From positions 1,171,501-1,235,500 of the forward strand of contig NC_060205.1 of the NCBI RefSeq assembly GCF_020623625.1: a stretch of DNA of 64,000 bases. Direction: 5' to 3'. Shown here one piece after another: positions 9,280 to 14,880 of this stretch; position 1 is the stretch's first letter, and each line of letters opens with the position of its first letter. A program made the position numbers and the translations under genes. The DNA is from Saccharomycodes ludwigii (Eukaryota > Ascomycota > Saccharomycetes > Saccharomycodales > Saccharomycodaceae). The notes under the pieces were generated by a model that did not search any database, had not been told where the DNA came from, and worked only from the letters and a program-made list of their open reading frames with translations.

Positions 9280-9533
9280 TTATGGTAATACTAAAAATAT
9301 AAATGCTCCCGTATTTTTTTTTTTTTTCCACTTCTCTGATATATTTTCTTTTATGTATATAAATAAAATAAGGCGAATAAAAAATAAAATGCAGCAACAT
9401 AAAAGATTTAGTAAGTTTCTATTTGTATTAGGGAAAAAAAAAAAAAAAAAAAAAAAAAAGTGGATTGTAAGGAACAATAACTCCAGGCTTTATCACCCCA
9501 CCATGAAGCACTTTCTTCTCCTATCCTTTAAAT

Positions 9534-9574
<41 letters not shown>

Positions 9575-10265
9575 GTTCGCTTATTTGGATGTAATTTCTT
9601 TTAATTAAATAATAAATCTTCGTATAAAACGATTTTCATTTTCTTAGTATTACCCGGAGTAGATGATATTAATTTGCTGGAATAATGGTTAGTGTAATTT
9701 ATAAGCTAGTCAACCCATTCCAAGTTATACCTTGGAAACTAAATTCATTAGCAAACAATTAGATTCTTCGTTCTTTATGTTTCTTTTCTTTTTGTTATTA
9801 ACATTCCATGGCTATTGAATTGTTATAAAGTTGTTAAGGCACTTCTTCAATACTACCAAATTGCACTTTATACGGCACTCAGTAAATACATTCTCAACAG
9901 TTTTCTCGCATACTAAAAAAAATAACAAATCAATGTCTATTGTAGATATTATTTCAATCTGTTTTTTTTTTTTTATTTTTTATTGTTGAGTTTTATTTCA
10001 ATGCGTGCGGATGTTTATTTTTGTGGCAAACGCTTCTCTCACCCCTTCTTTTTTCTTTTTCCTTTTACGTAAAAGTATAAACAAACCTTGTTTATTAATT
10101 CGGCTGTGATTATCTGGCAATTTTTCCCATCAACATATTACAGTTCTTCTTCTCCCTCTTCTTCTTCTTTTTTTTTTTTTTTTTTTAACTTTCCTCTTCT
10201 CTTTTGTTTCTATCCAAGTAGAATGACTTTGAGGAAGTAAACAAAAACATACATAGAACATCTCA
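9280..10265. promoter_or_regulatory. divergent promoter region, AMD1 / SRC1
   Basis: 986 bases without a convincing gene. It contains an A tract of about 26 bases near 9435-9460, a T tract of about 30 bases near 9538-9569, a Reb1-type site at 9650-9656, and C/T-rich stretches near 10030-10065 and 10145-10210 close to the SRC1 start. ORFs here merely read through the homopolymers. Confidence 0.5.
9650..9656 (+). promoter_or_regulatory. Reb1-type site TTACCCG
   Basis: An exact match to the yeast general regulatory factor Reb1 core, in the nucleosome-poor spacer between two divergent genes, about 370 bases from AMD1 and 610 from SRC1. The assignment is by motif only. Confidence 0.5.
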
Positions 10266-12562
10266 ATGAATTATACAGACCCAAATTTTGAGCCCAGTAA
10301 ATTAACTGCGGCTTCTTTACGTAAAATATTGGCTGAAAATGACATCCCATTTTCATTGAATGCAAAGAAAAAAGAATTACTTTCAATATTTAAAAAAGAG
10401 ATCAATAATATTAACGCCACAGATAAAAATATCAATTTAAAAAACTCACAAACTGTTAGTGATACTGGATCCGATTATGAAGAGGATGAAGATCAAAATG
10501 AACAAGGTCAAGATCAAGAGGGGGGGAATGAAAACCTAGCACCTGAAATAGTTATTAAGGTAGCAGACATTAATGGTTCTGTTACACCCAAAAAGAGAAA
10601 ACTGAGAAAATCTGCGAGGGCATCCCAAAAAGAAGTAAGAGAAGATGCTAATAAAAATAATAATGATTCAAGTTCTATTATAGATTTTACCAGGGAATCA
10701 AGCGATATTGATGGCTTAGAAATTATTGGAGAGTCTAGAAAGTCAAGCGGTGTGTTGGCTAGCCCGAAATTCTCTCCTTCGACTATTATTCCAAAAAAGA
10801 GAACTATTGAAGAATCACAGAAAGACAATAATGAAAATGGCAATGGCAATGTTTATTTGAATAATGGTAATAAGGATACCAATAATAATGCTAACAATGC
10901 TCACAACAGAAAATTTAGTGATGTGACTGATTTATTGGTTAGAAAAAAAAAAATGTTAAAAAGTGATATCACAGTTGCTGATGACAGCTTTTCAAAGAAT
11001 AAAAGATCTTTTAGTTCTCCTATTACCGATAAAGTTTCTCGTAAAAAAACTACTAGTGTATCGCCTCACAAGTCATTGATAATAGACAAATTTGAATCAA
11101 CAAATTCCTCATCTGAAGATATTTCTTTAACACAATATACCAATACCAATATCACTGCTACTAATGTTTTAGATACCAAAAAGGAAACTAATGCCAATAA
11201 AAGTGGCACACACCATTCGTTGAAAAATAGAAGTTATAGAGTCTTATCTTCAACAAGTAATGTGACAAACATGAAACAAGTAGAACAATGCGAGCAGAAA
11301 GAGAAGGAGGAAATAAAGACAGATATCAGCGAAAACAATGACAACAGTGTCATTTATAAACCTGTTAGGGAAATCGACATCAATAAATTAAAATTTAATT
11401 CACAAGTATCTGAAGGTTTAATTTCTCCTAGGGAAGAAAAAACTATATCCGAGGGAAATGGCATGGCTGAAGAGAAACCCATTATTTCTTTTGGGCAAAC
11501 ACCAACCTTTAAAGTCAATAATAACAATCGTTCCGAATTTAATGAAAATGCATTTACTAATGATACTCCACAAAAAAGTTTGGAAAATTGTTCGGAAGAG
11601 AAAATGAGTAAATCTATATCTAACAAAGAGGATGACTCTGTAACAGAAAAGCAAATCCAGCCGAAGAAAAAACACAAGGCAAAGAAAAACTTTATAGAGA
11701 TTTTAGAAGACGATTTAAAGGAAGAGATGGGTGAAGAAGTTAGTGAAATGGAAGACACTCCAGAATTAGAAGAAAATACCGAGGTTTCTACAGCCACAAA
11801 TTTACCAAGCATGTATGATAAATTGCTATTATCTTTAATCGCTGTCAATCGTTTCTTGTTTAAACTACTAATTAAACATTTATTATTTTCTATGATTCTT
11901 TTGCCTACATTGTATGGACTATGGTATCGTGAAAATAAAATAAAGGTTGGTTACTGCAATCATGAAATGGAAACAACTAGGTATGGACTCAATTTACCAT
12001 TTCTAAATACTGAGAAAACGACCAAGTGGATAAACAGTGAATATCCCAAATTGTCCTTTTTTAGTAATTTCTTTGAAACTATTGGGCAATATGTTGAAGA
12101 ACATAGTAACCCCCAATGTGTGCCATGTCCCGATAATGCTCTATGTTATCCATATATGGAATTACGATGTAAACCAGATTATATTAAAAAGCCTATGAAT
12201 TGGTTAAGTCTATATGGTCTTCTTCCAATTGGAGGAGAATGTGTCAGAGATCCAGCAAGAGAACACATTAGGGACGAGATGGTTACTAAAGCTTTAGAAT
12301 TATTAAGGGTTAAAAATGCGCAATACGAATGTGGTGAGTCCGAAGACGATGAATTATGTGGGTTAACTGATTTGGAATTGTACCAAATTTTTTATGAGTC
12401 AAAAAAGCCATGGGTAAAAGATGATGAATTCAATGAAATTTGGGAAGCTGTTAGTGAAAACTTAAAAAATGAACCCGAAATAAAATGGAGGCAAGTATAT
12501 ATTTCTTGAATTTTTTTTTTTTTTTTTTTTTTTGTTTCCTTTTAATATTCTCCAATTTATTA

Positions 12563-12599
<37 letters not shown>

Positions 12600-12911
12600 A
12601 ATTATTGATGATAACAATGATAATGTGAATATTTATTTTTGTTGCTAACTTTTTACTAACATATATATATGTGTGTATATATTTACCACAATTTAGATAT
12701 TAACAGGTTAACCAGTTTACAAACAATTCAAGTTCCAAGTGCAAAGATACCATTGAAAAAGTTGACTATGAAAAGGAAATTATTTCAAACAAGAAAGAAT
12801 GGGACACGAGCTCCATTGGAGCTTTTCGCTCAACATCCAAGAAGTACACAGGTTTCAGGTGCAGATTTGAAAGGGAAATTTTTAAAACCTATAGAGAGCA
12901 CAGAAACATGA
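10266..12911 (+). CDS. SRC1: Src1 short isoform by alternative 5' splice site
   Basis: If the upstream donor is used, 10266-12490 is joined to 12707-12911 and encodes 809 residues. The donor here is GCAAGT, four bases before the long-isoform donor. Exon 2 is then read in another frame for about 68 codons, giving a basic tail with AKIPLKKLTMKRK, and stops at TGA 12909-12911. That stop overlaps the ATG codon (12908-12910) where the second membrane helix starts in the long form, so the short protein ends just before that helix. S. cerevisiae Src1-S likewise lacks the second transmembrane segment and arises from overlapping donors. Whether this isoform is made here needs RNA data; the site geometry and open frame are seen directly. 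Confidence 0.7.
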
Positions 12912-13339
12912 TATGTTGTATCATATTATTATTTGTTTTTATTAAGTGGTTGAAATATAGACTAAGTAATTATTATAAAGAGCAAGACTTAGTTAACAAA
13001 TTGGTAATTCAAGTTTTGGTTAAATTACAAAAAACAAAAAAAAATTACGAAAGTGATTATCGTCAATATCGTCCCACAACTGCTGATGGTGACAAAGAAA
13101 ATCGCATATCAATAATGATAGTTCCTTATTTGAGCACTGTTCAATTAAGAGACCTATTGTTAAAAGACGTTGTTAATTTAAGATTGAAAAATAAGATATG
13201 GAATAAAGTTGTTAAGAAATTAGAAGGCAACAACACGAATGTGAAGTCCAGCTTAATGGAAGTGCATGGGGAAATAATGAAAGTTTGGGAATGGATCGGA
13301 TCAATTTCTTACGACGATAATGACGAGAGTAATAACTAA
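10266..13339 (+). CDS. SRC1: inner nuclear membrane protein Src1/Heh1, long isoform (spliced)
   Basis: Spliced as 10266-12494 joined to 12707-13339, giving 953 residues. Src1 (Heh1) is a LEM-like protein of the inner nuclear membrane that anchors chromatin, including subtelomeres and rDNA, and works near nuclear pores. Visible parts are the N-terminal helix-extension-helix domain (about 8-50), a long Ser/Asn-rich linker with basic NLS-like clusters PKKRKLRK (near 108) and KPKKKHKAKK (near 464), the first membrane helix (about 525-550), a lumenal Cys-bearing domain (CVPCPDNALCYPY), the second helix (about 811-827, MICCIILLFVFIKW) and the C-terminal MSC domain ending NVKSSLMEVHGEIMKVWEW. The last helix and MSC end are reached only by splicing. 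In S. cerevisiae SRC1 also lies next to AMD1, and its paralog HEH2 next to TOM1 and PFA5, matching both sides here. Confidence 0.93.
12495..12706 (+). other. SRC1 intron with alternative overlapping donors
   Basis: The long-form donor GTATAT is at 12495; the alternative donor GCAAGT begins at 12491. A perfect TACTAAC branch point is at 12654-12660 and the acceptor CAG ends at 12706. A nearer TAG (12694-12696) would put a stop within a few codons in either phase. The intron also holds a T tract (12510-12532) and an ATT/TTA triplet repeat (about 12557-12600). Confidence 0.9.
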
Positions 13340-14251
13340 TGGCTCAGAAATATGTTGGCCATTATTATTATTATTATTATTATTATTTTTTTCTTTTTTA
13401 AAATTGAATTATTGAGTCTTGAAAAAGGAGATTACAATTTCAACCAATTATTAGTACAAATAACAATATGGAGAACTTCTATATATAATTTTTGTGTATA
13501 ACGGTATATATTTTAACATTTCTTTTAGAAGTTTAAACTACTTGTGTGTTGAGTGTCCACCCTTATTATTTTTTTTTATTGTTATTGGCATTAATAGCAC
13601 GGAGCACTGACACCCGTGCGTGCCAAAAGCGTTTATCTTATATAAAAAAAAAATTGTCACCTAAGCTAAACTCCTTTCTTCCATTCAGCCGTCTCTCCGT
13701 GAATGCACCCCTAGGATACATACAATCTTAATATCAATCTCACAGATATACGTCTCAAATATAGTTTTAATATGGAGATGAAGGCTTAATAAAGATAAAA
13801 TCTTATATATTGGTATTGAATTTATTTTTAATGTTTTAGTAATATTATACATTGATTTAATTAGCTACTAGATTACACTAATGGCAGCAAAAAAGGGGAG
13901 GGAAGTAACGAACGAAAGAAAGAAAGAACATAAAAAATTAAGCTAAAATAACTGAAAAAGAAAATAAAAGGAAAGAAAAGGAAAAAAAAAAAAAAAAAAA
14001 AAAAAAGGGTGAGACATCTTAATGGAAACAGAATAAAATAGAAACATACATCTTTGACTTGGTCTTAGTGGTTTTCTAAAATTTTGTATATAAATAGGAC
14101 ATAGTTTGAAGTTTGTATCTTAGCATTTCCTGCTGCTACATTTCATTTCCGTCTTTTATTAATATAATGCCCTCTTAGTTATTTATTTACTCCTAAAAAC
14201 CACAAAAGCACAAGACAAGACAATAAAAAAAAAAAAAAAAAAAAAAGAAAA
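13340..14251. promoter_or_regulatory. spacer and promoter upstream of the 106-residue gene
   Basis: 912 bases. An ATT triplet run follows SRC1 (about 13363-13387). A poly(A) tract lies near 13983-14007 and a good TATA element, TATATAAATA, at 14087-14096, about 155 bases before the next ATG. A 61-codon ORF at 13546-13731 looks accidental. A second A tract sits directly before the start codon at 14252. Confidence 0.5.
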
Positions 14252-14572
14252 ATGAATCAATTTCGTACCGCTTTAATCAAAAGATATTACGCTACAGGTA
14301 CAGATCCTGTTACACATGACATGGGGAACAAACAGACCATACATTTGACTAGTAGAGGACCGGCTAGTAGTCTTAAAGTTTTAGGAAATATTACTCTTGT
14401 TTGTGTCGGGTTATTTGTCGGCTTCCAAGTTTATAGGCATAAGTTGATTGAAAAGACACAGAAAGAATGGGAAGATGAATTCAATAAGCTGAAAATTCAA
14501 AGTACGGGTGAAAAGGAGCTTGACCAAGGCATTCTGAATCCAAAAGTTAAAAATATTTACCAGCAACATTGA
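14252..14572 (+). CDS. small predicted mitochondrial membrane protein, unidentified
   Basis: A 106-residue protein I cannot name. The N-terminus (MNQFRTALIKRYYATG) is basic, free of acidic residues and rich in hydroxylated residues, and looks like a mitochondrial targeting sequence. One hydrophobic helix follows at about residues 43-61 (VLGNITLVCVGLFVGFQVY), and the C-terminal half is charged and helical (KTQKEWEDEFNKL). The layout suggests a single-pass inner-membrane protein with a soluble C-terminal tail, such as an assembly factor or small complex subunit; this is an inference from composition. A TATA element and an A-rich leader precede it. It lies between SRC1 and TOM1, which have no gene between their counterparts HEH2 and TOM1 in S. 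cerevisiae. Confidence 0.75.
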   Translation: MNQFRTALIKRYYATGTDPVTHDMGNKQTIHLTSRGPASSLKVLGNITLVCVGLFVGFQVYRHKLIEKTQKEWEDEFNKLKIQSTGEKELDQGILNPKVKNIYQQH

Positions 14573-14880
14573 GCATTTCAGAATTCCCACTTATTGATGA
14601 CCACTAAGAAAGAAGAAAAGGAGGAGATGGAAGCGACAGTATAGATCGTTTCAATTTTCAATTATGGGCTTTTGCTTTTATTATACATATTTTTTATAAA
14701 TGCCAAATCCTATGTAATTTTTTTTAACGTAAAGTATAAATTTTAAACACATGTTTATTTCTCAAATATAGACTTTTTTTGAAGTAAATAAGAAGCAGTA
14801 TTGACTCATATTATCTATTTAGATATATATATATGTATATGAAACAAAGAATAAAGGAGAAATGAATAAATAAATAAAAC
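14573..14880. other. convergent 3' region before TOM1
   Basis: 308 AT-rich bases between the convergent 106-residue gene and TOM1, with TATATATATGTATAT-like polyadenylation signals near 14824-14840. No gene is seen. Confidence 0.5.

What the first reader, a model, noticed from the sequence alone, without database searches (positions are those of the whole stretch)
12491..12706. Overlapping alternative 5' splice sites of SRC1 preserved in a distant yeast
Seen: exon 1 ends ...TGG AG followed by GCAAGTATAT, which offers donor GCAAGT at 12491 and donor GTATAT at 12495, four bases apart, ahead of TACTAAC (12654-12660) and CAG (12706). Known: in S. cerevisiae SRC1 the same layout (GCAAGTGAGT) gives two isoforms and its use depends on the ubiquitin-like splicing factor Hub1. 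Inference: alternative splicing of this gene predates the whole-genome duplication, and even the non-canonical GC donor has been kept. The second donor here (GTATAT) differs from S. cerevisiae (GTGAGT), so donor balance may differ.
Basis: partly seen in the sequence, partly recalled or inferred. Interest (0 to 1): 0.8.

Follow-up and report, generated by a model that had tools for sequence, protein, structure and literature searches.

The report
Yeast SRC1's overlapping splice-site pair
A single-copy nuclear-membrane gene in the yeast Saccharomycodes ludwigii carries the same overlapping pair of intron start sites that lets baker's yeast make a long and a short protein from one gene, which suggests that this rare yeast splicing switch is old, although no RNA has been examined here.

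Summary
At 12491-12500 the DNA reads GCAAGTATAT: a GC donor (12491) four bases before a GT donor (12495), with TACTAAC at 12654-12660 and CAG at 12704-12706. Joined to 12707, the GT donor gives a 953-aa Src1-L with two membrane spans; the GC donor gives an 809-aa one-span form with 67 residues in another frame. The genome is Saccharomycodes ludwigii. It holds one MSC-domain gene, with HEH2-side and SRC1-side neighbours together. HUB1 with Asp22 and a HIND protein are present.

Alternative splicing before the WGD is plausible but unproven. Given Arg-Gln, GCAA has probability 0.185, and the open second frame P = 0.16. Arg-Gln sits in a predicted strand, so the protein alone could fix it. Better support comes from relatives: Arg-Gln then Val recurs in the CUG-Ser1 clade, and one Scheffersomyces gene model is a short form consistent with the GC donor. 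A nearer TAG acceptor would give truncated products. RNA is decisive.

The parts
10266..12490 (+). SRC1 exon 1 as ended by the GC donor (short form)
   Evidence: open frame 10266-12509
10266..12494 (+). SRC1 exon 1 as ended by the GT donor (long form; ends Arg-Gln)
10293..10397 (+). HeH/LEM domain, residues 10-44
   Evidence: PF12949 E 3.4e-10
11853..11921 (+). first membrane span, residues 530-552
   Evidence: hydropathy
12491..12496 (+). upstream 5' splice site GCAAGT (GC donor)
   Evidence: 5 of 6 matches to GTAAGT, 4 of 6 to GTATGT
12495..12500 (+). downstream 5' splice site GTATAT (GT donor)
   Evidence: 5 of 6 matches to GTATGT, off at +5
12654..12660 (+). branch point TACTAAC
12694..12696 (+). 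competing upstream acceptor TAG; use gives 743- or 747-aa truncated products
12704..12706 (+). 3' splice site CAG that opens both long frames
12707..12911 (+). exon 2 read in the short-form frame, 67 codons after the junction codon, stop TGA 12909-12911
12707..13339 (+). exon 2 read in the long-form frame; second part of the MSC domain
   Evidence: PF09402 E 1.3e-40
12908..12967 (+). second membrane span, residues 811-830, long form only
   Evidence: hydropathy

Best explanation
This is the SRC1/HEH1 gene of Saccharomycodes ludwigii with one intron whose 5' end offers two overlapping donors. Both are off the yeast consensus, in different ways: the upstream one has C at +2 but a good AAGT and exon end AG; the downstream one has GT but A at +5 and exon end AA. 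The spliceosome would split between them (inferred). GT use keeps frame and makes Src1-L: HeH domain, span 1, lumenal domain, span 2, nucleoplasmic MSC end. GC use shifts the frame and makes Src1-S, which stops at the start of span 2 and so lacks the MSC end. As in S. cerevisiae, Hub1 bound to the Snu66 HIND would favour the GC site, so Hub1 sets the L/S ratio and with it the amount of the MSC end available to Chm7/ESCRT-III (inferred from S. cerevisiae). Shown here: DNA layout, frames, domains, gene order, presence of HUB1, a HIND protein and a Snf7-family protein of Chm7 size. Not shown: any transcript.
For: Layout and frames. MSC domain continues over the exons only in the GT frame. One gene; pre-WGD-like gene order. 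Hub1: best PDB match S. cerevisiae Hub1, E 1.2e-22, Asp22 kept. HIND motif E 6e-11 at the head of a Snu66-like gene whose tail matches SART-1 and PDB chain 5nrl_E weakly. A 447-aa Snf7-family protein is a Chm7 candidate. Among 55 of 59 anchored proteins of the Saccharomycetaceae set (S. ludwigii included) the exon-end residues are Arg in 47 of 47 and Gln in 46 of 47 distinct 20-mers, His in 1. The short frame of exon 2 is open in the seven other proteins where I recognised it: P0054, P0110, P0130, P0137, P0143, P0153, P0155. P0110 (Scheffersomyces xylosifermentans) is a short-form model consistent with the GC donor: its tail can encode TGYSSLSP in the long frame, matching the exon 2 start of P0063 at 7 of 8 residues, while 0 of 20,000 random 8-mers reach 7.
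Against: No RNA evidence. P(GCAA given Arg-Gln) = 0.185 and P(67 open codons) = 0.16, so neither is significant in this species alone. Arg-Gln lies in a predicted beta strand (739-743), with a further strand at 770-774 holding part of the invariant RS.S, so protein structure alone may keep it. The nearer TAG acceptor may win. The deposited model SCODWIG_01197 has only a GT-donor form, as if joined to an AAG acceptor at 12737-12739. No DNA of relatives was obtained, so codons in other species are unseen. The HIND search at E <= 1 also rang weakly, under the cut-off, in 3 of 14 control genomes.
Confidence: 0.66

Rival explanations
1. Only the GT donor is used. The GC hexamer is a by-product of the conserved residues Arg-Gln written AGG CAA, and the open second frame is luck.
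For: P = 0.185 for AGG/CGG+CAA given Arg-Gln; P = 0.16 for the open frame. Arg-Gln in a predicted strand. Deposited model uses GT only.
Against: The same kind of pair is used in S. cerevisiae (passages). The GT donor is off the GTATGT consensus here. One gene model and six ORFs in other species read the short frame openly.
Confidence: 0.22
2. Splicing is mostly non-productive: the TAG at 12696 is the main acceptor and yields truncated, NMD-prone transcripts, so the intron is a level control rather than a switch between two proteins.
For: TAG 12694-12696 is the first YAG after the branch point; both donors joined to it stop one or four codons on.
Against: The long frame of exon 2 carries a strong MSC match that needs the CAG or the AAG. 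The two sites are 10 bases apart, within the range where yeast acceptors compete (recalled).
Confidence: 0.08
3. The GC donor is used, but as Hub1-independent noise or under a different factor.
For: GCR1 in S. cerevisiae has staggered donors that do not respond to Hub1 (PMC3983031, passages). The GT donor here differs from the S. cerevisiae one.
Against: HUB1 with Asp22 and a HIND protein are both kept.
Confidence: 0.15

Closest known systems
S. cerevisiae SRC1/HEH1, Hub1-dependent alternative 5' splicing
   Same: Gene, intron place in the lumenal part, GC donor four bases before a GT donor, GC gives short and GT gives long (the S. cerevisiae decamer is from the finding and recall, from no call; isoforms, overlapping donors and the Hub1 effect from passages of PMC8431670, PMC3983031, PMC8393842).
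   Different: GT donor GTATAT instead of GTGAGT; short tail 67 residues after the junction codon instead of 49; intron 212/216 nt; one gene instead of SRC1 plus HEH2; use not shown.
S. cerevisiae PTC7 and fungal SKI7/HBS1 alternative splicing
   Same: Conserved alternative splicing of a gene that is duplicated in other lineages (PMC3597508, passages).
   Different: PTC7 is intron retention and SKI7/HBS1 another gene; the passages seen mention SRC1 only as alternatively spliced in S. cerevisiae with just the longer form shown functional (that paper is of 2013).
S. cerevisiae GCR1 staggered 5' splice sites
   Same: Two staggered donors (PMC3983031, passages).
   Different: Not Hub1-dependent; not this gene.

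Membership tests
SRC1/HEH1 (LEM/HeH-MSC inner nuclear membrane protein) | HeH/LEM domain at the N terminus | tested here: met
   PF12949, E 3.4e-10
SRC1/HEH1 (LEM/HeH-MSC inner nuclear membrane protein) | Man1-Src1 C-terminal (MSC) domain | tested here: met
   PF09402, E 1e-52 in exon 1 and 1.3e-40 in exon 2
SRC1/HEH1 (LEM/HeH-MSC inner nuclear membrane protein) | two membrane spans in the long form | tested here: met
   hydropathy at 530-552 and 811-830
SRC1/HEH1 (LEM/HeH-MSC inner nuclear membrane protein) | inner nuclear membrane localisation | not testable with these tools
   needs microscopy
Hub1-regulated SRC1 tandem donor | overlapping GC and GT donors four bases apart at the exon 1 end | tested here: met
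Hub1-regulated SRC1 tandem donor | upstream donor gives a one-span short form, downstream donor the long form | tested here: met
   by translation; not by RNA
Hub1-regulated SRC1 tandem donor | HUB1 gene with the HIND-binding aspartate | tested here: met
Hub1-regulated SRC1 tandem donor | HIND element on Snu66 (or Prp38) | tested here: met
   PF19252 over cut-off; Snu66 identity rests on weak C-terminal matches of a second frame, and the gene is split by a frame break in this assembly
Hub1-regulated SRC1 tandem donor | both junctions present in RNA, short form reduced without Hub1 | not testable with these tools
   no RNA data reachable
pre-WGD single-copy ancestor type | one gene, with SRC1-side and HEH2-side neighbours in one place | tested here: met
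   one MSC gene; DHHC and HECT giant together with AMP deaminase, Rad52, Ndc1; their S. cerevisiae places are recalled

The most novel reading that the evidence does not exclude
The SRC1 tandem donor predates not only the whole-genome duplication but the split between the Saccharomycetaceae/Saccharomycodaceae and the CUG-Ser1 (Candida/Scheffersomyces) yeasts. The intron sits in a disordered lumenal loop, and in many species it also looks like a stop-free multiple of three. One gene could then yield three products: GT-spliced long, GC-spliced short, and an intron-retained long form with extra loop residues. S. ludwigii has kept the donor pair but not the retainable reading.
Probability: 0.4. 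Interest if true: 0.65.

Novelty: new member of a known kind. Interest (0 to 1): 0.45.

Why it matters
Alternative splicing that makes two stable proteins is rare in budding yeasts, and SRC1 is a known Hub1 target in S. cerevisiae. If the donor pair is used in S. ludwigii, the switch between one-pass and two-pass Src1 is older than the HEH1/HEH2 duplication, so HEH2 arose from an alternatively spliced gene. The comparison also offers natural variants of the second donor (GTATAT here, Val-Ser-coding ones in the Saccharomycetaceae set, many others in the CUG-Ser1 clade) with which to test what Hub1 needs.

Tried and rejected
Codon and frame chance tests: not significant in this species alone, so I do not claim selection on the GC donor from this genome. 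Reordering the codons of the dual-frame stretch never made a stop (20,000 of 20,000 shuffles stayed open), so that control says only that few risky codons are present.

I first took the invariance of Arg-Gln as RNA-level constraint. The structure model puts both in a strand, so protein constraint remains possible. I first read the Suhomyces protein P0028 (...EIITGSSGV...) as intron read-through; comparison with P0063 and P0065 suggests a model spliced at another donor.

Rfam on 9500-14600: 0 families at gathering score. PF03343 did not find Snu66 at genome level, and its control rang nowhere; the HIND motif did find it. PF25880 is not in the library. U6 was located but not used.

Papers: Grund 2008 and Mishra 2011 are not held; Mishra 2011 may already show donor conservation. 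The statement that wider conservation was not found in print rests on search listings (20 of 50 listed; 15 of 323 listed), and on passages seen (one search found no passage). Several listed papers that name SRC1 (for example PMC8496845, PMC11816917, PMC5793784) were not opened.

Mended after a check of the report against the calls: the count of retained-intron readings, the codons past the TAG acceptor, the wording on strand pairing, and the short-frame claim, which I then tested with a control.

Full report
What is there. The window is G000:C6:1171501-1235500 of a 12.50-Mb genome in 8 contigs. The best protein match is Saccharomycodes ludwigii SCODWIG_01197, 98% identical over the searched region, residues 500-953. 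The published S. ludwigii genome is 12.5 Mb in 7 chromosomal scaffolds and shares many features with pre-WGD yeasts, with introns in 3.3% (PMC8567612, passages), which fits. The finding's coordinates are all correct.

Frames. With the ATG at 10266, exon 1 ended at 12494 and joined to 12707 gives 953 aa. Exon 1 ended at 12490 and joined to 12707 gives 809 aa, stopping at 12909-12911. The MSC domain match of exon 1 continues in exon 2 in the GT-donor frame. Hydropathy shows a span at 530-552 in both forms and one at 811-830 in the long form only. The short-frame TGA is made by the ATG ATA at the very start of the second span. Unspliced RNA would stop after RQVYIS, 747 aa.

Acceptors. The first YAG after TACTAAC is TAG 12694-12696, then CAG 12704-12706. 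Joining to the TAG gives 743 aa (GC) or 747 aa (GT), both truncated. The deposited SCODWIG_01197 lacks 11 residues after Arg-Gln; this is reproduced by the GT donor plus an AAG acceptor at 12737-12739. I take the CAG as the likely site, by inference.

Gene history. One gene with an MSC match was found in the genome, as two exon matches. Around it lie a DHHC transferase, AMP deaminase, a 3330-aa HECT protein, Rad52 and Ndc1. From recall, the first and third sit beside HEH2 and the others beside SRC1 in S. cerevisiae. A source names the Zygosaccharomyces parabailii protein 'HEH2 (YDR458C) and SRC1 (YM...', the same one-to-two relation.

Machinery. HUB1: C4:1540907-1541149, 65% identity. The translated protein matches S. 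cerevisiae Hub1 with E 1.2e-22, keeps Asp22 and has a nine-residue insert. HIND: one motif, E 6.1e-11, over the cut-off; the same search at E <= 1 rang under the cut-off in 3 of 14 control genomes. It heads a 300-aa frame; a second frame downstream matches SART-1 weakly (E 5.9e-4, under the cut-off) and S. cerevisiae Snu66 (E 0.026). Seven Snf7-family matches were found; one, a 447-aa protein with the domain in its C-terminal half, is a Chm7 candidate by size and layout only. In S. cerevisiae, loss of Hub1 lowers SRC1-S about threefold and the wild-type S/L ratio is 60/40 (PMC3983031, passages). Heh1-S has 49 residues of its own and lacks the MSC end that recruits Chm7 (PMC8393842, passages).

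Chance. In 19 ORFs of the window Arg is AGG or CGG in 24.3% and Gln is CAA in 76.3%, so GCAA before the GT has probability 0.185 given Arg-Gln. The 67-codon open short frame has P = 0.16 over 20,000 synonymous resamplings of exon 2. In one species neither is evidence of selection.

Relatives, first set. Searches gave 60 proteins, of which P0028 belongs to the CUG-Ser1 clade; the other 59 form what I call the Saccharomycetaceae set, P0001 of S. ludwigii included. In one search, 37 of these 59 read past the exon end into the intron (27 in its class through_L and 10 of the 12 in its class ends), and all 37 read Val-Ser after Arg-Gln (36) or Arg-His (1: P0043). This fits GTNAGY (or GTNTCN), not GTATGT, which would read Val-Cys. 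17 of 59 were classed as spliced; of the rest, P0027 (Arg-Gln kept, likely spliced), P0057 (labelled Heh2p, no Arg-Gln), and P0038, P0051, P0052 (no boundary found) add nothing to the count. S. ludwigii reads Val-Tyr. Many of the 37 are close relatives of each other.

Relatives, second set. One search with P0028 listed 120 of 121 proteins, 110 of them new, mostly of the CUG-Ser1 clade by the names given. Over all 170 proteins, 159 could be anchored; the exon-end pair is Arg-Gln in 131, Arg-His in 7 and other in 21. Of those 21, P0029, P0032 and P0047 were mis-anchored and do have Arg-Gln; others look like models that splice elsewhere, or were mis-anchored. After the pair, Val stands in 116 of 138; the next residue is Ser 37, Thr 20, Arg 12, Ile 11, Ala 9 and others, and Val-Cys occurs once (P0090). 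A few of these are spliced models. So a GT donor GTATGT is almost never seen here, if these residues are read-through.

Column conservation. In 47 distinct 20-mers of the first set (55 of 59 anchored) Arg is kept in 47 and Gln in 46; in 75 distinct of the second set (104 of 111 anchored) Arg in 65, Gln in 55, His in 7. In an alignment of 24 proteins, mostly picked by me because they looked spliced at Arg-Gln, both columns are among 41 invariant ones. The model of P0001 (mean pLDDT 56.7) puts residues 739-743 in a strand and 770-774 in another, with 749-766 under 50; pairing of the two was not seen. So Arg-Gln can be explained by the protein, and the intron lies where extra or missing residues would do little harm (inference).

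Short frame elsewhere. P0110 (Scheffersomyces xylosifermentans) ends ...EPEVIVR-RDIQVYHPRGSLLTLTTSSKDRKRTRFFDQRPYQTLALNVNFTTF. A test of codon choices shows that DNA coding this tail can code TGYSSLSP in the long frame, like the exon 2 start TGYSSLSN of Candida subhashii P0063 after Arg-Gln (7 of 8 residues jointly possible; 0 of 20,000 random 8-mers of the 170 proteins reach 7), and RSTSLSNL at the conserved block (8 of 8; control 1 of 20,000 reach 7). It is therefore consistent with exon 1 ended at AG, the GC donor. How that model was made is not known. P0130, P0143, P0153 and P0155 (8 of 8) and P0137 (6 of 8), and P0054 in the first set (8 of 8 with RSISKKYI), read the intron and then exon 2 in this frame. 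I chose these by eye; ORFs that stop soon after the branch point, such as P0151, were not tested. Some likeness of the tails follows automatically from the conserved RSTS of the other frame.

Retained introns. By a motif, 27 of 59 and 27 of 111 proteins go on from Arg-Gln(His)-Val to the exon 2 block in the long frame. P0021 and P0044 also do so but were missed by the motif; P0047, P0068, P0091 and P0108 are uncertain and may be spliced models. This looks like an intron of 3n bases without stops in many genera, which could give a third product. It is a side observation; exon-1-only ORFs were also found, and no null was computed.

Verdict. The pair of donors is real and in the right place, in a pre-WGD-type gene of a lineage outside the Saccharomycetaceae, with the Hub1 parts present. 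That it works as in S. cerevisiae is likely, not shown. The claim 'predates the WGD' is reasonable, and protein-level evidence hints at an older origin, but DNA of other species and RNA are needed. I found no held paper that reports it (search listings, two of them cut), while the main Hub1/SRC1 paper is not held.

Noticed in passing
27 + 27 proteins of class through_L, for example P0004-P0020, P0022-P0026, P0030, P0032, P0040, P0043, P0045 and many of P0071-P0105: In many budding yeasts the SRC1 intron appears to be a multiple of three without stops, and deposited or predicted proteins read through it; an in-frame TN or LT residue pair at the expected place fits TACTAAC. A third, intron-retained isoform is possible.
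   Followed up: partly
window 12694-12696: A TAG acceptor ten bases before the CAG would give truncated proteins with either donor.
   Followed up: partly
L005:29-1587 (G000 C1, minus strand): The Snu66-like gene is split into two frames near a homopolymer run: either an assembly error in the run, or a real frame change.
   Followed up: no
L004 (G000 C4), HUB1: S. ludwigii Hub1 carries a nine-residue insert after position 36 relative to S. cerevisiae Hub1.
   Followed up: no
SCODWIG_01197 (P0001): The deposited S. ludwigii Src1 lacks 11 residues, as if joined to an AAG acceptor 33 bases inside exon 2; probably a gene-model error.
   Followed up: yes
CUG-Ser1 proteins P0061, P0062, P0065, P0074, P0082: Models without Arg-Gln look spliced at a GT donor in the preceding Val codon, nine bases upstream of the usual GT and in the same frame: a possible third donor in that clade (my reading).
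   Followed up: partly
window 14253-14571: A small open gene starting MNQFRTALIKRYYATG lies between SRC1 and the HECT giant (my reading of the sequence); not identified.
   Followed up: no
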